From Cyanobacteria bacterium GSL.Bin1 (GTDB lineage: Bacteria; Cyanobacteriota; Cyanobacteriia; Cyanobacteriales; Rubidibacteraceae): a stretch of DNA of 38,229 nucleotides. Under the pieces are notes generated by a model. That model saw nothing but the letters and a program-made list of their open reading frames with translations, had not been told where the DNA came from and did not search any database. Every line of letters starts with the position of its first letter. The stretch's first letter is position 1. The position numbers and the translations under genes are program-made. Shown piece by piece: positions 1 to 33,761 of this stretch. Location of the stretch: NCBI GenBank assembly GCA_009909085.1, contig JAAANX010000026.1:1-38229 (forward strand), given 5' to 3'.

Positions 1-64
1 TAGCTGATCTCAAGCTAGGGAGTAATGGGTTAACGCTGTAGAAAGTGTTAATGAGGTAGGAGGC

Positions 65-1210
65 TTATCTAATATGCGTTGTGTACGTTGTAAGCGACAT
101 AAAGGCGTTAATATCACGATCTTCGCAATGACCACAATGCTGGCAATGATGAATTCGGTCACTCAATGTCTTTTTGGTGATTTCCCAACATTTAGCGCAT
201 CTTTGGGTCGGCTTAAGTGTCCGTGTTGGAGCTTCGGTGTAGATACCACCAGCTTCCTCAACTTTATACTTGAGATTGTCCTTGGTCATCCCAATAGCCA
301 CATCAAGCATTGACCGATTAAGCCCTGCTTTCTGAGGTTTACCTTTGCCTTTAGCCTTGCGGGTCATTCCTTTAAGCTTAAGCTGTTCCGTAGCAACCAA
401 GCTATTACTGCTGACAATTTGTGCTGCTACTTGATGCGACCAATCATGACGTTGATTGGCAACTTTTTTCTTAACCTTGCTGATTTGTTTTTGGTACTTC
501 TTCCAACGACGAGAAGCCTTAACTCTACGCTTTTCGGGGCGACGTTTGCGCCTTAATTTCTTAGAGAGTCGGTTTTCCTTAGTCTTAGCCTTAGCTTGGA
601 ATCTAGGAGCTTCGATAAACTCTCCATCGGAAGTGGCTATAGCAGACTTACATCCGAAATCAAGACCGATTGCACCTGTCCGAGTCTCTCTAATTGGTTC
701 GCATTTGACGGTTATACTTGCGTACCACTTTTGACCATCCCAAACTATCGTGCAAGTGGTAGGCTTCCCCCAAGTTCTGGCTTGTCCACGCATCCGAATC
801 TTTAAGCCTAAATCTCTGAGTTCTAGGTAGCCGTGTTTTCCTTCTGTATGAGCTTTCCAGCCTGCACTACAGGGATACGTCCACCCACGATATTTCCGTT
901 TGGCTTTGAACTTAGGATACTTACCTAATCCTTTGAAAAACCGTTGAAAAGCGAAATCAACTCGTTTTAAGGTGGCTTGGAGCGTGTGACTGCCGAATTG
1001 CTTATATTCCTTTAACTCTTCTTTGAAATCAGGAAGACTATTCTGTTGGTCAAAGTAATTTACCGAGTTTCCAAACTTTTGATACTGAACTTTTCGATTT
1101 GAAAGAGCAGCATTATACAAGTCGCAGTGGGCTTTTCTCGCATAATGGAGTTTTTGCTCTGCGGACTGATTAGGATAAAGTTTGAAAGTGATTCGGCCGG
1201 TTGTTGCCAT
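65..1210 (-). CDS. tnpB: TnpB, RNA-guided nuclease-like transposon protein
   Basis: A 381-residue TnpB of the IS200/IS605-IS1341 type. TnpB proteins are RuvC nucleases that use an RNA from the element's 3' end to cut DNA and so help retain the element. The split RuvC site is complete: Asp184 in IGLDFG, Glu275 in VATEQL and the DRD at 364-366. A zinc ribbon lies between the last two (Cys338/341 and Cys356/359). A very basic stretch covers residues 217-250. The ATG is followed by the usual short beta-strand N-terminus. No tnpA is in reach, so this is a tnpB-only element or a solo domesticated copy. The 3' end, where the guide RNA would be, lies at the left window edge and is probably cut off. 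The gene is divergent from a small RHH gene. No HIP1 site lies inside it. Confidence 0.93.
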   Translation of the reverse strand: MATTGRITFKLYPNQSAEQKLHYARKAHCDLYNAALSNRKVQYQKFGNSVNYFDQQNSLPDFKEELKEYKQFGSHTLQATLKRVDFAFQRFFKGLGKYPKFKAKRKYRGWTYPCSAGWKAHTEGKHGYLELRDLGLKIRMRGQARTWGKPTTCTIVWDGQKWYASITVKCEPIRETRTGAIGLDFGCKSAIATSDGEFIEAPRFQAKAKTKENRLSKKLRRKRRPEKRRVKASRRWKKYQKQISKVKKKVANQRHDWSHQVAAQIVSSNSLVATEQLKLKGMTRKAKGKGKPQKAGLNRSMLDVAIGMTKDNLKYKVEEAGGIYTEAPTRTLKPTQRCAKCWEITKKTLSDRIHHCQHCGHCEDRDINAFMSLTTYTTHIR

Positions 1211-1219
1211 AACCTATTT

Positions 1220-1257
1220 AAGTTAAACTTAGGCTAGTATAGCCTACGAAAAGCCTA
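1220..1257. promoter_or_regulatory. Divergent tnpB/RHH spacer with nested dyads
   Basis: The 48-bp spacer holds two inverted repeats: AAGTT-A-AACTT (1220-1230) and TAGGCT-N5-AGCCTA (1230-1246). A third AGCCTA half-site follows at 1252-1257, just before the RHH start codon. Repeated half-sites between a DNA-binding protein gene and its divergent neighbour are typical of an autoregulatory operator. That RHH binds here is inferred. Confidence 0.5.
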
Positions 1258-1258
1258 C

Positions 1259-1396
1259 ATGACAACCAGAGATAAATTTATTAAAATCCGCTTATCAGAG
1301 GAAGAGCAAGACAAACTAAAAAGATTTGCTGAAAGCAAAGGATGGAGTCAAGCTCAAGCAGTAAGAGATTGGATTAGAAGGCTACCCCAAAAATAG
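1259..1396 (+). CDS. Small ribbon-helix-helix (RHH) DNA-binding protein
   Basis: A 45-residue protein starting MTTRDKFIKIRLSEEEQDKL. The pattern is a short beta-strand with alternating residues (FIKIRLS), then two helices joined by a turn (EEEQDKLKRFAESKG, then WSQAQAVRDWIRRL). This is the minimal MetJ/Arc-type RHH fold, whose dimers read DNA with the beta-ribbon. It starts 48 bp from the divergent tnpB start and ends in TAG. RHH genes of this size are often missed by gene callers. The likely role is repression of itself and of tnpB. It could alternatively be an antitoxin, but no toxin gene follows. Confidence 0.7.
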   Translation: MTTRDKFIKIRLSEEEQDKLKRFAESKGWSQAQAVRDWIRRLPQK

Positions 1397-1495
1397 ATGG
1401 ATATCTCAAGGCATTGAGCCTTTCGACGATTGTTGCTTCGTTAGTATATTAAAAGTTAACTGGCTACGCGATCGCGCATTCTTCAAAGGAAAAAC

Positions 1496-19254: not shown

Positions 19255-19343
19255 ATCGGTGAAATTCAAGGGGTTAATAGCAGAACCTAATTTTCTAATC
19301 AAACTTACTTAAATTTGATTATTTATTGTGCTATCATAGGGTT

Positions 19344-19946
19344 ATGAGTAAGTTTAGTATTTCCGAAGCAGCAAAAATTAAAGGAGTATCTCCATCAACA
19401 CTCAGACGTTGGGAAGCAGAAGGTAAGTTAATTCCTGAGCGAACCGAGTCAGGTCATCGGAGATACTCTATGTCTCAGCTTCTTGGCGTGGAATCTCATC
19501 AAGCATACACCATTGGCTATGCCCGAGTGAGTAGTCATGAGCAAAAACAAGACCTGGAGCGTCAAAAGGAGATCATTGAACTCTTCTGCGCTCAAAATGG
19601 TTGGGAGCACGAAATTATTCAAGACCTCGGTTCAGGTATGAATTACAGCAAGCGCGGTCTTAAACGCCTTCTACGATTAATCACTTCCGGGGAAATTGAC
19701 AGACTGGTACTGACTCACAAAGATAGGTTACTTCGATTCGGCGCTGAATTGGTGTTTAGCTTGTGCGAGCAATTTGGTGTTGAAATTGTCATCATTAACC
19801 GCACCGAAGACACGAGCTTTGAAGAGGATTTAGCAACGGACGTTCTAGAAATCATAACAGTGTTTTCTGCTCGTCTCTATGGTAGTAGGAGTCATAAAAA
19901 TCAAAAGATTGTTGAGGAGTTAAAACAAGTCGGTGAAAGGCTTTAA
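19344..19946 (+). CDS. tnpA: IS607 TnpA, MerR-HTH serine recombinase
   Basis: 200 residues from ATG 19344 (a TTG six codons upstream is open but unlikely). Residues 4-49 form a MerR-type helix-turn-helix (FSISEAAKIKGVSPSTLRRW, then GHRRYSMSQL). The serine-recombinase domain follows, with YARVSS at 59-64; Ser63 is the expected nucleophile and Arg61 the partner. GSGMNYSKRGLKRLL and LVLTHKDRLLRFG are further catalytic-domain motifs. A small IS607 resolvase of this type drives transposition with low target specificity. It overlaps tnpB by 14 bp. No frameshift is present, so it looks functional. Confidence 0.95.
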   Translation: MSKFSISEAAKIKGVSPSTLRRWEAEGKLIPERTESGHRRYSMSQLLGVESHQAYTIGYARVSSHEQKQDLERQKEIIELFCAQNGWEHEIIQDLGSGMNYSKRGLKRLLRLITSGEIDRLVLTHKDRLLRFGAELVFSLCEQFGVEIVIINRTEDTSFEEDLATDVLEIITVFSARLYGSRSHKNQKIVEELKQVGERL

Positions 19947-21054
19947 GACAAAACTAAAACTTAATAACCAACAACGGACACTAATGGCAAAACACGCAGG
20001 AGTTGCTCGTCATGCTTGGAATTGGGGATTAGCGACTTGTAAAGAGATATACGAGTCTGGAGGAAAACGACCGACGGCGGTTAACTTACACAAAAAGTTA
20101 GTCGCAGAAGTGAAATCAGTTAATCATTGGTATTATGAAGTCTCGAAATGCGCGCCCCAACAAGCCTTAAGAAATCTAGATCAGGCGTTTAAGCGAGTGT
20201 GGAAAGTCAAAGGAACCGGTTTCCCTAAATTCAAAAAGAAAAATATCAGAGATAGCTTTTATTTAGAAGGAAGTCTCACGATTTCAGGTGATTGGATTAA
20301 ACTCCCACGAATCGGTTGGGTCAGGAGTCACGAGCAACTACCCCCTGTTAAACCAAAGAACGTAGTTATTAGTAAACGGGCGGGAGACTGGTACATTTCT
20401 TTCAAGATTGAGTGTGAACCTCAACCTCATCCCAAAAGTAAAACCAGTATTGGTGTTGATGTCGGAATTAATACTTTGGCAACCATGAGTGATGGGACAA
20501 CTCACCCGAATCCAAAAGCCTATCGTCGCGCCAAAAAGAAACTAGCCAAACTGCAAAAAGAGTTATGCCGTCGCCAGAAAGGAGGTAAGAATCGTGAAAA
20601 GACTAAACTTAAATTAGCCAAAGCGCACAAGCGCATCGCTGACGTTCGAGCCGATCATTTACACAAGTTAACGACTCACTTAGCCAAGAACCACGGAGAA
20701 GTGAAAATCGAGAACTTAAATGTATCTGGAATGCTCAAAAACCATAAACTAGCGGGTGCGATTGCCGAGGGCGGTTTCTACGAATTCCGTCGCCAGCTTG
20801 AATACAAATGCCAATGGTATGGCAGTAAGTTAACGCTAATTGACCAATGGTACCCAAGTTCGCAGATTTGCTCTAATTGTGGACACAGACAGAAGATGCC
20901 ACTTAATCAAAGAACTTATGATTGTCCTAATTGTGGTCTCTCTATTGATCGTGACTTAAACGCAGCGATTAATCTAGAGCTCCGACCTGAGCTTCCGTCT
21001 AGGAAGCATCAGGAAGCGGAGCTAAGTGCGGATAGCTCAGCCGTGCAAGCCTAG
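19933..21054 (+). CDS. tnpB: IS607-associated TnpB, RNA-guided nuclease
   Basis: A 373-residue TnpB with GTG start overlapping the tnpA end. The RuvC residues are all present: Asp176 (GVDVGIN), Glu260 (VKIENL) and DRD at 339-341. The zinc ribbon has Cys313/316 and Cys331/334. The N-terminal part (residues 1-110) is the wedge/REC region, with HAWNWGLA and the basic FPKFKKK motif. It should be guided by an RNA made from the 3' end of this gene and the element end. The 3' terminal codons lie in predicted hairpins, as expected. The protein is only distantly similar to the two other TnpBs in the window. Confidence 0.95.
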   Translation: MKGFKTKLKLNNQQRTLMAKHAGVARHAWNWGLATCKEIYESGGKRPTAVNLHKKLVAEVKSVNHWYYEVSKCAPQQALRNLDQAFKRVWKVKGTGFPKFKKKNIRDSFYLEGSLTISGDWIKLPRIGWVRSHEQLPPVKPKNVVISKRAGDWYISFKIECEPQPHPKSKTSIGVDVGINTLATMSDGTTHPNPKAYRRAKKKLAKLQKELCRRQKGGKNREKTKLKLAKAHKRIADVRADHLHKLTTHLAKNHGEVKIENLNVSGMLKNHKLAGAIAEGGFYEFRRQLEYKCQWYGSKLTLIDQWYPSSQICSNCGHRQKMPLNQRTYDCPNCGLSIDRDLNAAINLELRPELPSRKHQEAELSADSSAVQA

Positions 21055-24378: not shown

Positions 24379-24783
24379 ATGAATCCTGATTTCATCAATC
24401 AAGTTGTCAATCTCATTAATGAGGAACGGACACAAGCAAATTTAGATCCGCTGCAAATGGATCGTCAATTATCTGAGGCGGCCCAACTGCACAGTGAAAG
24501 TATGGCCGATGATGATTTCTTTAGTCATTACGGCGTTGATGGATCTTCACCGTTTGATCGCATTGAAGATGCCGGCTATCAATATGCAAGGGCTGCCGAA
24601 AATCTTGCCGCAGGTTATCAAACGCCAGAAGCAGTAGTCCAAGGATGGATGAATAGTTCCGGGCATCGTGCCAATATCTTGAATTCTGACTTAACTGAAA
24701 TTGGTGTTGGTTATGAATATTTAGCCAATGATACGGGTTCGGTTAACTACAACAGTTACTGGACAACTACCTTTGGAACTCCT
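24379..24783 (+). repeat. CAP direct repeat, copy 1
   Basis: 405 bp, repeated at an offset of 444 bp (24823-25227). I count roughly 23 differences, nearly all at third codon positions. Confidence 0.85.
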
Positions 24784-25233
24784 TCGATGCCCAGCGAAAA
24801 ACAAATGAATAGTGAGGAAAAAATGAATCCTGATTTCATCAATCAAGTTGTCGATCTCATTAATGAGGAACGGACACAAGCAAATTTAGATCCGCTGCAA
24901 ATGGATCGTCAATTATCTGAGGCGGCTCAACTCCACAGTGAAAGTATGGCCGGTGATAATTTCTTCAGTCATTATGGGGTTGATGGGTCTTCACCGTTTG
25001 ATCGCATTGAGGATGCCGGCTATCAATATGCAAGGGCTGCCGAAAATCTTGCAGCAGGTTATCAAACGCCAGAAGCCGTGGTCCAAGGATGGATGAATAG
25101 TTCAGGACATCGTGCCAATATTCTAAATTCTGACTTAACTGAAATTGGTGTTGGTTATGAATATTTAGCCAATGATACAGGTTCAGTTAACTACAACAGT
25201 TACTGGACGACTACTTTCGGAACTCCTCTTTGA
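24379..25233 (+). CDS. Tandem CAP/SCP domain protein
   Basis: 284 residues made of two almost identical 135-residue CAP (CRISP/antigen 5/PR-1) domains joined by a 13-residue linker. Each domain shows VNLINEERTQANL (or VDLINEERTQANL), LSEAAQLHSESMA, FFSHYGVDGSSPFDRI, AAENLAAGY and GHRANILNSDLTEIGVGY, including the two His and the Glu of the CAP cavity. The protein has no signal peptide or membrane segment, unlike most secreted CAP proteins. Only three residues differ between the domains. An internal ATG with a GAGGAAA ribosome binding site opens the second domain. It is followed 9 bp later by the IS200/IS605 end hairpin. Confidence 0.9.
   Translation: MNPDFINQVVNLINEERTQANLDPLQMDRQLSEAAQLHSESMADDDFFSHYGVDGSSPFDRIEDAGYQYARAAENLAAGYQTPEAVVQGWMNSSGHRANILNSDLTEIGVGYEYLANDTGSVNYNSYWTTTFGTPSMPSEKQMNSEEKMNPDFINQVVDLINEERTQANLDPLQMDRQLSEAAQLHSESMAGDNFFSHYGVDGSSPFDRIEDAGYQYARAAENLAAGYQTPEAVVQGWMNSSGHRANILNSDLTEIGVGYEYLANDTGSVNYNSYWTTTFGTPL
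24823..25227 (+). repeat. CAP direct repeat, copy 2
   Basis: Second 405-bp copy, same length as copy 1 and without indels. It begins at an ATG preceded by GAGGAAA. Confidence 0.85.
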
Positions 25234-25274: not shown

Positions 25275-26399
25275 TCAAACAGAAGTTGCAGGACAAGCCT
25301 GTCTTACACTTCCTACTCCCACAGACGGAATCCCGCCTGTTTTTAGGTTCTTAGCTGCGTTTAAATCTCGATCATGACGAGTATAACAGCTTGGGCAGTC
25401 CCACTCCCTAACTTTCAACTCCAAGGGTTCTAAAACATATCCACAATGACTACAAGTTTTAGAACTAGGAAACCATTGGTCTCTATAAACAACTTGTTTC
25501 CCTTTCTTGAGCGCAACCCACTCTAAAATATCAAGAAATTCCCTTAATGCTAAATCAGAGACTTTTCTCCCCCAGATACGCATCATTCCTTTAAGATTTA
25601 AGGTTTCAAAATAGAGAGTGTCGAATTGGTCGGTTAACTGATGAGCAAGTTTCCAGAACCAGTCTCTTCTTTGGTTGGCTACTTTCTCATGACAACGAGC
25701 TAAATGTTTTCTTGTTCTCTCTCGACCTCTTGAACCTTTCTCCTTTCGGGATAGTTGTTTGTTGGCTTTTCTAATCTTTTTTAAGGAACGTTTTAAGAAC
25801 AGAGGAGACTGAATCTCAAATCCTTCCGAGCAAGTTAGAAAACTCTTTAACCCAAAATCAAATCCAGCGATTTGACCCGTCTCAGATTTAATCTCTTGCG
25901 GAGAAGGAGTATCGACAACAACTGTTAAAAATAACTCACCTAATGGAGTTCTTTTAACCGTTACGGTTTTGACTTTCCCCTCAATGGGTTGGGAGTTCCA
26001 GAATTGATAGACTCGTTTTCCGATTTTGATCCGATTTCCACTAAGAAACTTGTAGCCAGCTTGTTTAAGCGTGAATGATTTATATTTCTTTACTTTCTTA
26101 AAGTTAGGCGGTCTAACCCCTTTCTTGTTGTGCTTAAAAAACAACTGGTAGGACTTTTCAATTCGTTGGCAAATATCTTGAACGGATTGAGAGCCTAACG
26201 TTTGCCATTGAGGATTTCGCTTTCTCAACTTGGCAATATGCTTCTGAAGTTTAGCACCGTTCAAATGCTTTCCAAACATACGATAATACCGCTTATGAAG
26301 GGCGATACAGTGATTGTAGATTACCCCTGCGGTATTAATTTGTCGCTTAAGATAGCGATTTCGCTTGTGTTGGTAGAGTTTGAACTTTATTGTCTTCAT
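25275..26399 (-). CDS. tnpB: IS605-type TnpB, RNA-guided nuclease
   Basis: A 374-residue TnpB. Active-site residues are complete: Asp181 (AGFDFGLK), Glu265 (LYFETLNL) and DRD at 343-345. The zinc ribbon has Cys316/319 and Cys335/338. The N-terminal half contains GVRPPNFKK and the helical IYNHCIALHKRYY segment typical of the family. The gene ends just inside the tnpB-side hairpin, so the guide RNA would come from the last codons and the region down to about 25240. It is divergent from tnpA over a 43-bp spacer. Confidence 0.95.
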   Translation of the reverse strand: MKTIKFKLYQHKRNRYLKRQINTAGVIYNHCIALHKRYYRMFGKHLNGAKLQKHIAKLRKRNPQWQTLGSQSVQDICQRIEKSYQLFFKHNKKGVRPPNFKKVKKYKSFTLKQAGYKFLSGNRIKIGKRVYQFWNSQPIEGKVKTVTVKRTPLGELFLTVVVDTPSPQEIKSETGQIAGFDFGLKSFLTCSEGFEIQSPLFLKRSLKKIRKANKQLSRKEKGSRGRERTRKHLARCHEKVANQRRDWFWKLAHQLTDQFDTLYFETLNLKGMMRIWGRKVSDLALREFLDILEWVALKKGKQVVYRDQWFPSSKTCSHCGYVLEPLELKVREWDCPSCYTRHDRDLNAAKNLKTGGIPSVGVGSVRQACPATSV

Positions 26400-26442
26400 T
26401 ATGTCTATAATAACAGATCAATAGACAACCCAGTAATCCAAC

Positions 26443-26841
26443 ATGAATCAAAAATATCGACACGATAACACATCGGTTTCTCTTTTGAACTACCATTTTG
26501 TGTGGATTACAAGGAGACGAAGAAAAATATTAGATGGTCACTTAGACAAAAGACTGAAAGAGTTAATCTATCAAGCAGTAGAGGAGATAGAATGCGAGGT
26601 TATTGCTCTACAAACTCATTACGATCAGGTTCATCTCTTTGTTAATGCTCACCCTCGATTAGCTCCTTATCAAATTATGCACAAAGTTAAAGGATACTCT
26701 TCTCACTTCTTAAGAAAAGAGTATCCTTGGTTAAAGCAAAAACTTCCAAGCCTGTGGACAAGAAGCTATTTTGTCTCTACTGCGAATCAAGTTTCAGGTG
26801 ATACGATTAAGCGATATGTGGAGGATCAAAAAAGTCATTAA
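26443..26841 (+). CDS. tnpA: IS200/IS605 TnpA, Y1 transposase with altered HUH motif
   Basis: A 132-residue Y1 transposase, the single-strand DNA 'peel and paste' enzyme. The family body is intact: VSLLNYHFVWITRRRRK, LIYQAVEEIECEVIAL, MHKVKGYSSHFLRKE and WTRSYFVSTA, and the nucleophile Tyr125 is in IKRYVEDQ. The metal-binding HUH motif, usually HVH, reads Gln62-Val63-His64 (DQVHLFV, codon CAG). A CAT or CAC to CAG change is one base. The enzyme may be weakened or inactive, or Gln may replace His as a ligand. The ATG overlaps no other gene. Confidence 0.93.
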   Translation: MNQKYRHDNTSVSLLNYHFVWITRRRRKILDGHLDKRLKELIYQAVEEIECEVIALQTHYDQVHLFVNAHPRLAPYQIMHKVKGYSSHFLRKEYPWLKQKLPSLWTRSYFVSTANQVSGDTIKRYVEDQKSH

Positions 26842-29000: not shown

Positions 29001-30137
29001 CTACTTAGTAACTGGCGAATCAACATAAATCATCGGTTCTTCCATGGAAAATTCTAGTTGGTTATCAGACAATTGCTTACCAATTTCTTGGTTCGCCACT
29101 TCCACTAACCGCTTACGGAGGTTGAGGGAGCTACTACTGGAACTAAGGAGGAAAAAGCTCACCCGAGCCCGAGTTCCCGGTTTATCTTCCGGTTCAAAGG
29201 TGGCAATGCGAATACTTCCCGGTTCCACACCAAAAATTTGACTGAGGCTATTTCCTAAAACGCGATCCACAAATGCTCGCTCGGGGTCATTGAGCACTTT
29301 CTGAAAATCTAAGTAGAGCAACGCCATTACTTTTGTACCCCGAGAAATATTTTCCACATCCATACTTGCCATTAGCGAATTCGGAACAATCAAAAGGGTA
29401 TTTTGAGCAGCCAGTCGAATTTTAGTGGAACGAATGCCAATGGACTCCACACGACCGTAAATATCTTCCGCTGCGGGGTTGAAATTAGCACGGACATATT
29501 CCCCTGGGACATAAGGACGATCTAAGTAGAGGACAATCGTACCCACAATCTGCGATAAAACTTCTTGGGCAGCAAAAGCAACGGCAATCCCGCCAATACC
29601 AACCCCGGTCAAAACACTCACCAGATTCAAATTTTGACTATTGGCAAACACAATCACAGCAAAGAAACCAATGATGACATTGGCAACGGTTTCTCCCACC
29701 AGGAGAAAATCATCCATCTCTTTGCTGAAACGTTGCAGCAGTAACACGCCATAAACCCGAATCATTTGTCGTACTAACCGTGATAGCAGCCAAGCTATGG
29801 TAATTGTTAGGGCGAGATAAACAACGAGTTGTAAAAAGTCATATAATCCAGGATAACCTTGAAACCAGTTAATATTGATAGCGGTAATAATTAAAACACC
29901 CGTTCGAGCAATTAAACCTCGCAAGGGAGCAACCACTTTGTCATAAGGATCAGCAATCACTTTTGGGGCAAAACGATCAATACTCCATTGAAAGAAGGAG
30001 GGGAGCAATCGCCCTACTAAAATAGCAACTACGGTAAAAAAGACAAACCATCCTAGGTTAATCCCAAAGTTAATCAGTTCTGCTCTAAAGTTGTCATCAA
30101 TGGCAAATACTCTTTGAAAAATTTCTAAAATATCCAT
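29001..30137 (-). CDS. MscS family mechanosensitive channel (copy 4)
   Basis: A 378-residue small-conductance mechanosensitive channel that releases solutes on hypo-osmotic shock. Four to five membrane helices precede the pore helix, whose signature is LTGVGIGGIAVAFAAQEVLSQIVGTIVLYLDRPYVPGEYVR. The beta domain begins DIYGRVESIGIRSTKIRL and continues TLLIVPNSLMASMDVENISRG. The C-terminal alpha/beta domain ends EFSMEEPMIYVDSPVTK. It is the last gene of a four-member mscS operon, 30 bp after its upstream paralogue. It is very similar to copies 2 and 3. Confidence 0.92.
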   Translation of the reverse strand: MDILEIFQRVFAIDDNFRAELINFGINLGWFVFFTVVAILVGRLLPSFFQWSIDRFAPKVIADPYDKVVAPLRGLIARTGVLIITAININWFQGYPGLYDFLQLVVYLALTITIAWLLSRLVRQMIRVYGVLLLQRFSKEMDDFLLVGETVANVIIGFFAVIVFANSQNLNLVSVLTGVGIGGIAVAFAAQEVLSQIVGTIVLYLDRPYVPGEYVRANFNPAAEDIYGRVESIGIRSTKIRLAAQNTLLIVPNSLMASMDVENISRGTKVMALLYLDFQKVLNDPERAFVDRVLGNSLSQIFGVEPGSIRIATFEPEDKPGTRARVSFFLLSSSSSSLNLRKRLVEVANQEIGKQLSDNQLEFSMEEPMIYVDSPVTK

Positions 30138-30167
30138 TATCTTCTTTAAGGCAATACAATATAAAAA

Positions 30168-31307
30168 TTACAGAGGAACCGGTGAATCAACATAGATGGT
30201 TGGTTCGGCAAATTCAAACTGTAAACCTTCGGTTTGCAATTGCTTAGTAATCGATTCGTTGGCAATTTCTACTAAACGTTTTCGGATGGCGAGCGACTTT
30301 TCATTGGATCCTCTAATAAATAAGTTAATGCGAGCACGGGTAACGGGTTGATCCTCTAGTTCAAATAATGCAATTTGAATGCCTCCGGGATCGAGTCCAG
30401 AAAGCTCTTTATGAAAACTTTCTTCAATCACTTTGTAGACCAAAGCAGATTCTGACTCATCTAAGACACGAGCAAAATCGAGGTAAAATAGCACCATCAC
30501 TTTGGTGCCTCGGGAAATATTTTCCACATCCATGCTCACCATGAGTGAGTTAGGGGCGATTAAAAGAGTATTTTTAGCAGCAAGTCGGATTTTAGTCGAA
30601 CGAATGCCAATGGACTCCACTCGCCCGTAGATGTCTGCACCTCGGGGATTAAAGTTAGCCCGGATATACTCTCCTGGAAGATAAGGGCGATCCAGGTAAA
30701 GGATAATTGTCCCAACCACTTGCGATAGAGTCTCCTTCGCCGCAAAAGCAACGGCAACCCCGCCAATACCTACACCGGTCAGAAGGCTGATCAAATTGAT
30801 ACTTTGACTTTGGGCAAAGAAGATAACCGCAAAGAAACCAATGACAAAATTGGCAACGGTTTCACCCACAATCAAAAAATCATCTGCTTTCCGATTCAAA
30901 TGCTGAATCAGCTTCACCCCATAGAATCGAGTGAGTTGTCGGATGACTCGGGATAACAACCAAGCAACGGTTATGGTGAGGGGGAAATAAACCACCAACT
31001 TTAAGAAGTCATATAAACCGGGGTAAACTCGAAATAGGTTAATGTTAATGGCAGTAACGGCAAGAATTCCAGACCGAATTACTAATTGGCGCAAGGGACC
31101 CACTAAACGCTTGTAAGACTCGAAGAAGCTATCGGGAGCAAAGCGATGAACACTGGAGCGTAAAAAAGAGGGTAAGGTTAATCCTACTAACACGGCAAGG
31201 AGAGTAAATAAGATAAACCATCCTAGGCGAATGCCAAACGCTAACAATTGTCTTTGTAGTTCAGCATCAATTCCTAAGGCCTGTTGGAAAGTTTCTAGAA
31301 AATTCAT
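30168..31307 (-). CDS. MscS family mechanosensitive channel (copy 3)
   Basis: A 379-residue MscS channel, closest to copy 4. The shared core is LLTGVGIGGVAVAFAAKETLSQVVGTIILYLDRPYLPGEYIR, in which Lys replaces the usual Gln after AFAA, followed by DIYGRVESIGIRSTKIRL and NTLLIAPNSLMVSMDVENIS. The C-terminal FEFAEPTIYVDSPVPL is conserved among the paralogues. The intergenic distances (30 bp on each side) indicate one transcript. The Ala-Lys change lies in the pore-helix region and could alter ion selectivity; this is inference. Confidence 0.92.
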   Translation of the reverse strand: MNFLETFQQALGIDAELQRQLLAFGIRLGWFILFTLLAVLVGLTLPSFLRSSVHRFAPDSFFESYKRLVGPLRQLVIRSGILAVTAININLFRVYPGLYDFLKLVVYFPLTITVAWLLSRVIRQLTRFYGVKLIQHLNRKADDFLIVGETVANFVIGFFAVIFFAQSQSINLISLLTGVGIGGVAVAFAAKETLSQVVGTIILYLDRPYLPGEYIRANFNPRGADIYGRVESIGIRSTKIRLAAKNTLLIAPNSLMVSMDVENISRGTKVMVLFYLDFARVLDESESALVYKVIEESFHKELSGLDPGGIQIALFELEDQPVTRARINLFIRGSNEKSLAIRKRLVEIANESITKQLQTEGLQFEFAEPTIYVDSPVPL

Positions 31308-31337
31308 GAGTTTCCAAAACTTGCTGGCAAGTCATTT

Positions 31338-32510
31338 TTAGAGGGTTACTGGCGAATCGACATAAGTGGTGGGTTCGGCAAATTCAAATTTCAACCCCTG
31401 GGCTTGTAATTGATCGCTGATTGATTTGTTAGTAATTTCGACTAACCGTTTACGGATCATGATTGATTCTTCGTTCGATCCCATGACAAACAAGCTAATG
31501 CGAGCTCGGGTTCCCGGTTTGTCTTCCGGTTCAAACAGAGCAATTTTGGTACTGCCTGGGTCGAGTCCGAAGAGTTCTTTGTTGACACTTTCTTGAACCA
31601 CCTTATTCACTAACGCGCGCTCGGATTCATCCAGAACATTATAAAAATCAAGATAAAAGAGAACCATGACTTTCGTTCCCCGAGAGATATTTTCGATATC
31701 TTTAGTGACCATCAAGGAGTTGGGAACCACTAATAAGGTATTGGTAGCGGAAATCCGCAGTTTAGTCGAACGTAAGCCAATGGACTCGATGCGCCCATAA
31801 ACATCTTCTTGGGTAACCACAAAGTTAATGCGAACGTATTCTCCAGGAAGATAAGGACGGTCTAAATAAATAACAATGGTGGCAAGAATTTGGGAGAGGG
31901 CTTCTTGGGCTGCAAACGCGATCGCGATCCCCCCAATCCCTAAACCGGTTAGTAAGGCAATCAGGTTAAAGTTTTTACTTTGAGCAAAAATCAACACCGC
32001 AAGAAAGCCAATGATCACATTCACTGTGTTTTCAAAAATCAGAATGAGATCGTTCACTTCTTGACTCACTCGTTTGAGAAGAGTTACACCATAAATCCGA
32101 ATCGCTTGTTTGGCCACTCTTGACACCAGCCAGGCGACACTGGCCATTACCGCAAAATCAGCAATAAAGTTAATCACGCCATAAAACGGCTCATAACTCT
32201 TGAGGAAATTGAGACTAATATCAATGAGGATTAGGCTCAGTGTTCTCACAAAAGCATCACGGAAGGGATCGGTAAAGGTTTTGTATTCTTGAAATTTTTC
32301 TGGGGGCAGCGATCGCGCAGTAAACCACAGCAGAATCGAAGGGGTGACCCGACTCACCAGAATGGCAAGGACAATGCAGATTAATAATCCTGCCAAACGA
32401 ATTCCCAACAGAATCAGGAATTCTCGCGTAGGTTGGTCAAACTCCAAAAGCTGGGAAACCTTCCAATTTTCTGGAAGAATTTGTAAGGGATTAAAGGCAA
32501 GTAGATTCAT
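31338..32510 (-). CDS. MscS family mechanosensitive channel (copy 2)
   Basis: A 390-residue MscS channel. Core LLTGLGIGGIAIAFAAQEALSQILATIVIYLDRPYLPGEYVRIN, then DVYGRIESIGLRSTKLRI and NTLLVVPNSLMVTKDIENIS. The C-terminal domain is very close to that of copy 3 (ESVNKELFGLDPGSTKIALFEPEDKPGTRARI). The N-terminal membrane part differs more, so the channels may gate differently. It lies 27 bp downstream of copy 1. Confidence 0.92.
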   Translation of the reverse strand: MNLLAFNPLQILPENWKVSQLLEFDQPTREFLILLGIRLAGLLICIVLAILVSRVTPSILLWFTARSLPPEKFQEYKTFTDPFRDAFVRTLSLILIDISLNFLKSYEPFYGVINFIADFAVMASVAWLVSRVAKQAIRIYGVTLLKRVSQEVNDLILIFENTVNVIIGFLAVLIFAQSKNFNLIALLTGLGIGGIAIAFAAQEALSQILATIVIYLDRPYLPGEYVRINFVVTQEDVYGRIESIGLRSTKLRISATNTLLVVPNSLMVTKDIENISRGTKVMVLFYLDFYNVLDESERALVNKVVQESVNKELFGLDPGSTKIALFEPEDKPGTRARISLFVMGSNEESIMIRKRLVEITNKSISDQLQAQGLKFEFAEPTTYVDSPVTL

Positions 32511-32537
32511 CGCGCTTCAATATTCATTCAATGTGGA

Positions 32538-33761
32538 CTAGATATTCATTGGAGAATCGACATTAATCGGTTTCTTGTCAATTTGGAAACCAATGCCGTA
32601 ATCTTTGAGACGTTTACTAATGTTCCGTCGGGCAGCATCTAAGAGTTGGGTCCGAATTTCCAGCGCCATTGAACCTGAGCCAAGAATAAAGAACGTCACC
32701 TGCGCTTTCACTTGCCCTGATCGACCATTACTCGTGTTACCAACATCCTGGAAGGTAACCTCCGTTAAGCGATGGTCAATCCCATAAATATCTTTGGTGC
32801 TGTCGAGGATAATCTGGCGCACCAATGCCTTTTCTTGTTCCGGAATACTGCGCTCAAAAAAGATATTGAGCAGGGTAATAATTTTCTGCGCTCCCGAGAG
32901 ATTCTCAATCGACATCTGGGTGAGCATACTATTGGGAATCACCACGAGGGTTCCTTTCCCCGAAAGACGGATTTTACTGGAACGCCAGCCGATGGCTTCT
33001 ACCCGACCAAAGGTGCCATCTTGGAGATGAATATAATCATCGACCACAAAGGGACGATCAACATATAGAAGAATCGTCCATAAGACTTGTTCGAGAACTT
33101 TCTGAGACGCAAACGCGATCGCCAAACCACCAACGCCAATACTTGCAATTAAGCCCGTGATACTAAGGCGATGAGACTCGGCAAAGATAAAGATAACAAT
33201 CAGAATAATCAGAGCATTAGCCACAAATTTGATAAAGGCTAACAGCTCACTGTTGACATTGTTTCGGCTTCTCAGCGCTAAATCGAGGAGATATCCCCCA
33301 AAAAATTGATCAAAGAGGGTAAACGCTAAAAGACAAATATTAATCGCGATCGCGCCACCGAGAAAAAATTCACTGATGTATAACCAAGTGGGTTTATCCG
33401 GGGTTAATAATAAAACAATATCCCCAATGGAAAGGAAGAAAGATAACGCAATCCATCTCTGATAAGGGGCAAAGATTTGTTGATAGGCTTCTCGTAATTC
33501 GGAAGGGAGAAAACGAGAAACCAGAAAGCTCAGAATCCTTGGAATAACAAAAATAGTGGTGATGATAAGGAGAGCAAAAAATCCTACAATCAGATAAATG
33601 GGGTCGATAGAGATCGGTTGTCCAGAAGTCAATCGCTCTACTTGATCAAATAACTCCAGCATCGACTCTGCCGCTTCTAGAGAAGACGAATCTGTCTCTA
33701 AAAAATGTTGAAAAGTTGGAAAGAAATAATTCTGATTGGTCGTGCTGAACACAGTAATCAT
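32538..33761 (-). CDS. MscS family mechanosensitive channel (copy 1, divergent)
   Basis: A 407-residue MscS channel, first gene of the operon. It has extra N-terminal sequence (about 55 soluble residues, TDSSSLEAAESMLELFDQVE) before the membrane helices. The pore region is GLIASIGVGGLAIAFASQKVLEQVLWTILLYVDRPFVVDDYI, and the beta domain is GRVEAIGWRSSKIRLSGKGTLVVIPNSML. The C-terminus QIDKKPINVDSPMNI keeps the VDSP ending shared by all four. It is the least similar member, so it probably predates the duplications that gave copies 2-4. TACAAT about 45 bp upstream is a weak -10. Confidence 0.9.
   Translation of the reverse strand: MITVFSTTNQNYFFPTFQHFLETDSSSLEAAESMLELFDQVERLTSGQPISIDPIYLIVGFFALLIITTIFVIPRILSFLVSRFLPSELREAYQQIFAPYQRWIALSFFLSIGDIVLLLTPDKPTWLYISEFFLGGAIAINICLLAFTLFDQFFGGYLLDLALRSRNNVNSELLAFIKFVANALIILIVIFIFAESHRLSITGLIASIGVGGLAIAFASQKVLEQVLWTILLYVDRPFVVDDYIHLQDGTFGRVEAIGWRSSKIRLSGKGTLVVIPNSMLTQMSIENLSGAQKIITLLNIFFERSIPEQEKALVRQIILDSTKDIYGIDHRLTEVTFQDVGNTSNGRSGQVKAQVTFFILGSGSMALEIRTQLLDAARRNISKRLKDYGIGFQIDKKPINVDSPMNI

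What the first reader, a model, noticed from the sequence alone, without database searches (positions are those of the whole stretch)
65..1396. TnpB paired with a divergent 45-residue RHH protein and an operator-like spacer
An apparently active TnpB (Asp184, Glu275, DRD 364-366, zinc ribbon) has no TnpA. It faces a tiny ribbon-helix-helix gene across 48 bp that contain AAGTT-A-AACTT, TAGGCT-N5-AGCCTA and a third AGCCTA. RHH proteins bind tandem half-sites of this type. The layout suggests a regulator that keeps an RNA-guided nuclease silent, which would be a dedicated TnpB control module rather than plain transposon debris.
Basis: partly seen in the sequence, partly recalled or inferred. Interest (0 to 1): 0.65.

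Follow-up and report, generated by a model that had tools for sequence, protein, structure and literature searches.

The report
Repressor-like gene swapped for transposase gene
In many cyanobacterial jumping genes that carry an RNA-guided DNA-cutting enzyme, the transposase gene has been replaced, again and again, by a tiny DNA-binding protein that comes with its own likely binding site and probably keeps the cutting enzyme in check.

Summary
In detail: a 45-residue ribbon-helix-helix (RHH) gene faces tnpB across 48 bp. The window copy is a remnant; homology to its nearest relative stops at bases 105 and 1426, so the right end with the guide-RNA region is gone.

The pairing is a recurrent module. 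Of 117 loci of this TnpB subfamily (a few sites twice), 67 have a divergent tnpA, 26 an RHH gene, 24 neither, none both; the RHH label needs 14 changes on the TnpB tree. A second subfamily: RHH 14, TnpA 7, neither 9 of 30.

In Picosynechococcus PCC 7003 (name inferred), seven RHH-TnpB copies share tnpB and both ends with one TnpA-TnpB element; only spacer plus ORF differ. RHH codons are under purifying selection. RHH spacers are enriched in 11-bp tandem repeats, and spacer likeness follows RHH more than TnpB, with exceptions. In PCC 7003 the repeat occurs only at the seven modules. All 24 RHH-side TnpBs checked keep the catalytic residues.

Best reading: a CopG-like autorepressor cassette controlling TnpB in non-autonomous IS200/IS605 elements. 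DNA binding and repression are untested. New variant of a known kind.

The parts
65..1210 (-). tnpB (RNA-guided nuclease family), D184, E275, D366 and 4 Cys kept; C-terminal tail replaced after DRDINA
   Evidence: homology to G368 stops at base 105
1..104 (.). no detectable homology to the right end of the relative G368; the contig begins at base 1, so right end and guide-RNA region are lost or cut off
1211..1258 (.). spacer, presumed to hold both divergent promoters; changes together with the RHH gene or tnpA in relatives
1241..1258 (.). predicted RHH operator: AGCCTAC-N4-AGCCTAC, 11-bp period, conserved in G368 and as a YTAC tandem in G054
1230..1246 (.). TAGGCTAGTATAGCCTA inverted repeat; encloses a -10-like TATACT of the tnpB strand (1241-1236); left arm not conserved in G368
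1259..1396 (+). 45-residue RHH (CopG-like) protein gene in the tnpA position
1397..1426 (.). remnant of the left end of the element, with hairpin AAGGC-ATTGA-GCCTT (1408-1422); homology to G368 stops at 1426

Best explanation
The RHH gene and the spacer beside it form a cassette that has replaced the tnpA cassette of IS200/IS605-type elements many times in cyanobacteria. Shown by sequence: position inside the mobile unit (PCC 7003), exchange with tnpA, mutual exclusion, selection on the protein, enrichment of 11-bp repeats in the spacer, a statistical tie of spacer to RHH type, intact TnpB. Inferred: the RHH dimer binds two or more half-sites one helical turn apart in the spacer, covers the divergent promoters and represses both its own gene and tnpB, so that the dose of the RNA-guided nuclease stays low and nearly independent of copy number, as CopG does for a plasmid replicase (recalled). 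Also inferred: the elements lack a transposase and move by a TnpA supplied in trans, while TnpB with its guide keeps the element in place. The window holds a decayed member whose RHH and tnpB frames are still open.
For: 117 loci: TnpA 67, RHH 26 (two labelled by hand), neither 24, both 0; after removal of near-identical rows, tree of 107: TnpA 63, RHH 21, neither 23; RHH label 14 changes, at least 11 forced by starred branches. Second subfamily, best locus of 30 of 43 genomes: RHH 14, TnpA 7, neither 9, both 0. G083: seven copies at seven sites with common ends, RHH inside; against its TnpA-TnpB element, identity of 85.6% over 1267 bp ends at the tnpB start codon and resumes at the RHH stop codon (89.7% over 87 bp); that TnpA is the only full-length Y1_Tnp match of two in G083. 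Eleven hand-picked RHH/TnpA pairs (three loci used twice): tnpB-side identity ends -3 to +22 bp from the tnpB start in 11 of 11. dN/dS 0.02-0.19 in 24 of the 25 pairs, of 32 compared, that gave a ratio; 0.44 in the other. Spacers: direct-repeat excess at offset 11 in 15 RHH clades (p=0.0025; t=3.0), not in 55 TnpA spacers (t=1.3); in seven spacers of the second subfamily p=0.005 at offset 11, no other of 15 offsets below 0.05. Spacer likeness follows RHH likeness with TnpB held constant (35 modules, partial r 0.23, p=0.001), less so the reverse (0.09, p=0.066); in 21 pairs with like TnpBs and unlike RHHs the spacer score stays at background (3-8, background 95th percentile 8). L085 and L158: TnpB 30% identical, RHH 62%, shared GACGGCAATATGRCGGC. 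G083 operator: 7 sites with up to 2 mismatches, all at the 7 modules; reversed control pattern 2.
Against: No binding or expression data. Five RHH copies in G255 sit in a 539-bp unit without tnpB, so RHH is kept without TnpB at least briefly. In one search, 65 of 111 RHH matches (some sites counted twice) have no TnpB in the fetched stretch, and 5 of 7 plasmid matches lie without a listed tnpB: the RHH family is not specific to TnpB. Of 15 clade representatives only 4 have a direct-repeat p below 0.05 on their own; offsets 5 (t=2.1, also in TnpA spacers, t=4.2) and 16 (t=2.7) stand out too. Of five pairs with like RHHs and unlike TnpBs, only two (L158 with L085 and L105, one event) share the site; L158/L217 and L158/L228 score 5 and L188/L245 8, near background. 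Left-end homology after the swap was sharp (within 11 bp of the stop) in 4 of 11 RHH/TnpA pairs, looser in 4, not found in 3. PDB fold matches are weak by E-value (best 0.57).
Confidence: 0.65

Rival explanations
1. RHH regulates or assists transposition rather than TnpB: it acts on its own promoter and on the element ends or on a TnpA made in trans, for example to limit excision. TnpB is only a neighbour.
For: RHH sits in the tnpA slot between left end and tnpB; RHH-only mobile units exist in G255.
Against: The repeats lie in the RHH-tnpB spacer, which changes with the ORF; the G083 operator with up to 2 mismatches occurs only in the seven spacers, not at element ends or before tnpA.
Confidence: 0.17
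2. Antitoxin-like partner: RHH autorepresses and also binds TnpB protein to block it, as type II antitoxins do with toxins.
For: RHH domains are common in antitoxins (recalled); fold matches include VapB26 and TacA2; RelB-like NCBIfam matches in 6 of 21 at E 0.01.
Against: These proteins are short (43 to about 66 aa), many hardly longer than the RHH core, so they lack most of the C-terminal segment antitoxins use (recalled); unlike RHH types sit beside TnpBs 93% identical, so a fixed protein interface is unlikely.
Confidence: 0.08
3. Passenger: RHH genes of host or plasmid origin are carried by chance in a tolerated slot and do nothing for the element.
For: RHH relatives also stand alone (65 of 111 matches; plasmid records).
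Against: 14 changes of the label, at least 11 forced, always in the same slot and orientation by the way loci were scored; low dN/dS; spacer tied to RHH type.
Confidence: 0.1

Closest known systems
IS200/IS605 family elements (tnpA + tnpB, divergent) and tnpB-only IS1341-like elements (names recalled)
   Same: Same TnpB subfamily, same ends in PCC 7003, same slot divergent from tnpB
   Different: The tnpA cassette is replaced by an RHH cassette with its own spacer; no TnpA in the element
CopG / ORF56 plasmid copy-control repressors (RHH)
   Same: Size and predicted fold (TM 0.69 to CopG over 36 columns; ORF56 also listed), repeated half-sites one turn apart (CopG site recalled)
   Different: Faces an RNA-guided nuclease gene instead of preceding a replication gene; sequence identity only about 25%
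TldR, nuclease-dead TnpB-derived repressors (recalled, Wiegand et al. 2024; paper not held)
   Same: Link between TnpB and transcriptional control
   Different: Here the nuclease residues are intact (24 of 24) and a separate protein is the presumed regulator of tnpB

Membership tests
TnpB, RNA-guided nuclease (NF040570 / PF07282) | RuvC D, E, D and Cys4 zinc ribbon | tested here: met
TnpB, RNA-guided nuclease (NF040570 / PF07282) | guide RNA encoded at the element's right end (window copy) | tested here: not met
   homology to G368 ends at base 105. Rfam gave no guide-RNA match in the window, but none in intact relatives L093, L178, L180 either, so it says nothing
RHH superfamily (MetJ/Arc/CopG) | RHH sequence profile and two-helix core in about 45 residues | tested here: met
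   RHH_1 in 11 of 21 relatives, helices 14-27 and 31-41, CopG among fold matches; the window protein alone stays below Pfam's cut-off
RHH superfamily (MetJ/Arc/CopG) | dimer with beta ribbon that binds DNA on tandem sites | not testable with these tools
   monomer model only; indirect: 11-bp repeats
IS200/IS605 element | defined ends, copies at different sites | tested here: met
   for the G083 relatives, seven copies; not for the truncated window copy
IS200/IS605 element | own Y1 transposase gene | tested here: not met
   0 of 117 loci carry both TnpA and RHH; hence called a non-autonomous derivative
TldR (dead TnpB repressor) | loss of RuvC catalytic residues (recalled) | tested here: not met
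Type II toxin-antitoxin | antitoxin binds and neutralises a toxin protein | not tested
   no interaction data; protein hardly longer than the RHH core

The most novel reading that the evidence does not exclude
A portable repressor-operator cassette converts an ordinary IS into a regulated, transposase-free RNA-guided element: TnpA comes from elsewhere, TnpB secures the copy, and the cassette senses copy number and holds total nuclease dose steady. Cassettes with different specificity replace each other on the same TnpB chassis, so that families become insulated from one another, like plasmid incompatibility groups.
Probability: 0.4. Interest if true: 0.78.

Novelty: new variant of a known kind. 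Interest (0 to 1): 0.62.

Why it matters
How TnpB genes persist without a transposase, and how elements avoid harm from their own RNA-guided nuclease, are open questions. A dedicated, exchangeable repressor in the transposase slot would be a direct answer that can be tested in laboratory cyanobacteria such as PCC 7003, and would add a layer of control that the papers searched here did not turn up.

Tried and rejected
Debris or spurious ORF: rejected by dN/dS and recurrence. AAGTT-A-AACTT as operator: rejected because G368 lacks it. Inverted repeats as the general spacer feature: Fisher p=0.70 over 15 clades, against 0.0004 for direct repeats. Dead TnpB: rejected. RHH acting on the tnpA promoter in G083: no operator-like site there. 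RHH-tnpB association as chance: 40 of 111 RHH matches are divergent and within 400 bp of a TnpB match (some sites fetched twice); that profile was built from TnpB neighbours, so the fairer figures come from TnpB searches. PDB sequence search: weak hits only. Rfam: no guide-RNA match in the window or in intact relatives, uninformative. Literature: searches listed no paper that by title, start of abstract or the passages seen describes an RHH gene beside tnpB. Of the three papers holding TnpB and ribbon-helix-helix I saw passages of two and the listing of the third; of Karvelis 2021 and PMC6006769 passages; of the others the listing and start of abstract. The 2023 TnpB survey and the TldR paper that I tried are not held.

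Rows dropped or doubled: the 117 loci hold the best locus of 30 of the 34 genomes (only 30 were loaded), the best 80 of 175 and the 7; L037 and L186 are one site. leave out modules with spacers under 22 or 20 bp and L187 and L229 (start codons unsure), one search also short TnpBs. The catalytic count covers the 114 loci with TnpB of 280 aa or more. One search scores L276 as neither although one search shows an RHH 61 bp from its broken TnpB (L069, L111). In one search seven of ten second-subfamily spacers were used (L281, L283, L294 are near copies); they belong to related RHHs and I had seen them before the test, but the 11-bp offset had been set.

Full report
The window is contig C26 of an unnamed cyanobacterial genome of 4.8 Mb. 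A 381-aa TnpB frame (65-1210, minus) and a 45-aa frame (1259-1396, plus) face each other across 48 bp. The small protein is RHH-like: its own Pfam matches stay below cut-off, but 11 of the 21 aligned RHH proteins match RHH_1, the predicted monomer has an extended start and helices 14-27 and 31-41, and CopG is among the fold matches, TM 0.69, 1.4 A over 36 columns, though no match has a strong E-value (best 0.57).

The window copy is decayed. Against the nearest relative, G368 (TnpB 89% identical), DNA homology runs from 105 to 1426 only. To the left the last TnpB residues, the right end and the guide-RNA region are missing; to the right the left end is cut about 30 bp after the RHH stop codon. 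The contig starts at base 1, so an assembly cause for the left break cannot be excluded. This copy is probably immobile and, without a guide in cis, not a working nuclease system on its own.

The pairing recurs. A protein search of 386 cyanobacterial genomes found close TnpBs (E 1e-80) in 34, of which 30 loci were loaded; scans of named genome contigs and of viral contigs gave 80 (best of 175) and 7 more. Of these 117 loci, a few of them the same site twice, 67 have a divergent Y1 tnpA, 26 an RHH gene (L233 and L252 labelled by hand) and 24 neither; none has both. On a tree of 107 TnpBs left after removal of near copies (TnpA 63, RHH 21, neither 23) the RHH label needs 14 changes, at least 11 of them forced by well supported branches; shuffled labels need 19.5 on average, so it is clustered to some degree but far from one origin. 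In a second TnpB subfamily, typified by a TnpB of the window's own genome that is 36% identical to the window's, matches were found in 43 of 386 genomes, and 30 loaded loci gave RHH 14, TnpA 7, neither 9 and both 0.

The RHH gene lies inside the mobile unit and takes the place of tnpA. Genome G083 has seven RHH-TnpB copies at seven sites with common ends TGAACT...AGTTCA, about 1.5 kb; in six of them the TnpB match runs nearly full length in one frame, in L090 it is broken. From contig lengths and hit positions G083 is Picosynechococcus PCC 7003 and G058 is PCC 7117. Of two Y1_Tnp matches in G083 one is full length; it belongs to a TnpA-TnpB element on a 253-kb replicon. That element matches the RHH elements at 85.6% over 1267 bp up to the tnpB start codon, and again at 89.7% over 87 bp from the RHH stop codon outward; no match was found between. 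Eleven RHH/TnpA pairs, picked from the tree and with three loci used twice, were compared: in 11 of 11 identity ends between -3 and +22 bp from the tnpB start codon; beyond the ORFs collinear left-end homology was found in 8, within 11 bp of the stop codon in 4. RHH types also replace one another: the PCC 7003 and 7117 TnpBs are 93% identical but their RHHs 23%, and L187 and L189 have sister TnpBs with unlike RHHs.

The protein is under selection: of 32 pairs compared, 25 gave a dN/dS ratio, 24 of them between 0.02 and 0.19 and one (L217/L228, 3 synonymous changes) 0.44; the rest were saturated or had no synonymous change. TnpB is too: in the 24 RHH loci with TnpB of at least 280 aa, all 24 keep D, E, D and the four Cys.

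The spacer carries the presumed operator. In several clades the bases just before the RHH start codon show repeats about one turn apart: AGCCTAC twice at 11 bp in the window and G368, TATTGTA twice at 10 bp in G083, GACGGC twice at 11 bp in the KKLTVRC clade. Over 15 clade representatives the excess of direct repeats peaks at offset 11 (t=3.0; p=0.0025); 55 TnpA spacers show little there (t=1.3). Offsets 5 and 16 also reach t=2.1 and 2.7 in the RHH set, and offset 5 reaches 4.2 in the TnpA set. Seven spacers of the second subfamily, with related RHHs, show the excess at offset 11 (p=0.005) and at no other of the 15 offsets tried. Only 4 of the 15 clades reach p below 0.05 singly, and the MART clade seems by eye to have a palindrome instead.

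Does the spacer go with the RHH or with TnpB? Over 35 modules spacer likeness follows RHH likeness when TnpB likeness is held constant (partial r 0.23, p=0.001), and TnpB likeness less (0.09, p=0.066); in 21 pairs with like TnpBs and unlike RHHs the spacer score is 3 to 8, that is background. L085 and L158 are the best case for transfer: TnpBs 30% identical, RHHs 62%, the same GACGGCAATATGRCGGC site, score 17 against a background of 5.7 with sd 1.4. Against it, L158 with L217 and with L228 (RHH 67% and 64%) score 5, and L188/L245 8: the tie is a tendency, and specificity may change within a type. In the whole of G083 the site TATTGTAGTCTATTGT with up to two mismatches occurs seven times, each time in one of the seven modules; the reversed control pattern hits twice.

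Mechanism. Shown: an exchangeable unit of RHH gene plus spacer in the transposase slot of elements that keep an intact nuclease. Inferred: the RHH dimer binds the spacer repeats and represses both divergent promoters. In the window a -10-like TATACT for tnpB lies inside 1230-1246. In a multicopy element such a repressor would fix total TnpB dose, as CopG fixes replicase dose (recalled). Movement would depend on TnpA in trans; PCC 7003 has one full-length candidate. Against exclusivity, G255 holds RHH-only 539-bp units in at least five copies, 65 of 111 RHH matches have no TnpB in the fetched stretch, and of seven RHH matches on plasmids two lie beside a TnpB and five do not.

Known and new. 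TnpB without TnpA is known, and so are CopG-type repressors. A repeated replacement of tnpA by a repressor cassette was not seen in what the literature searches listed; key surveys were not held, so the claim of novelty is bounded. In the two plasmid records with RHH beside TnpB no separate gene is listed for the RHH (that gene table is incomplete), which may be one reason why it has escaped notice.

Noticed in passing
L098-L102 (G255), 539 bp around the RHH: A 539-bp mobile unit with an RHH gene but no TnpB: five copies, four of them 96.3-99.6% identical to L098; a sixth (L103) shares only 201 bp on the RHH side. Six of the 12 RHH matches in G255 were fetched.
   Followed up: partly
L090-L096 (G083): The seven copies are mosaics: blocks of tnpB differ as if exchanged by gene conversion among copies.
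   Followed up: no
L130, L133, L137, L139, L140, L142-L146, L149, L153, L155, L163, L165, L167, L168: A near-identical RHH (KKWAVKRITVNLATQEAEKLEKYC...) in 17 loci; 16 of them have no TnpB match in the fetched stretch (L140 has one on the same strand). Looks like a conserved chromosomal regulator.
   Followed up: no
window 19326-21054: MerR-type serine recombinase overlapping a second TnpB: an IS607-like pair.
   Followed up: no
window 25275-26841: A third TnpB with a divergent Y1 transposase: a complete-looking IS605-type pair in the same window, a built-in comparison to the RHH module.
   Followed up: partly
window 29001-33761: Four similar membrane-protein genes in tandem (mechanosensitive-channel-like by eye, not tested).
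   Followed up: no
window 24379-25233: One protein made of two nearly identical halves (internal duplication), seen by eye.
   Followed up: no
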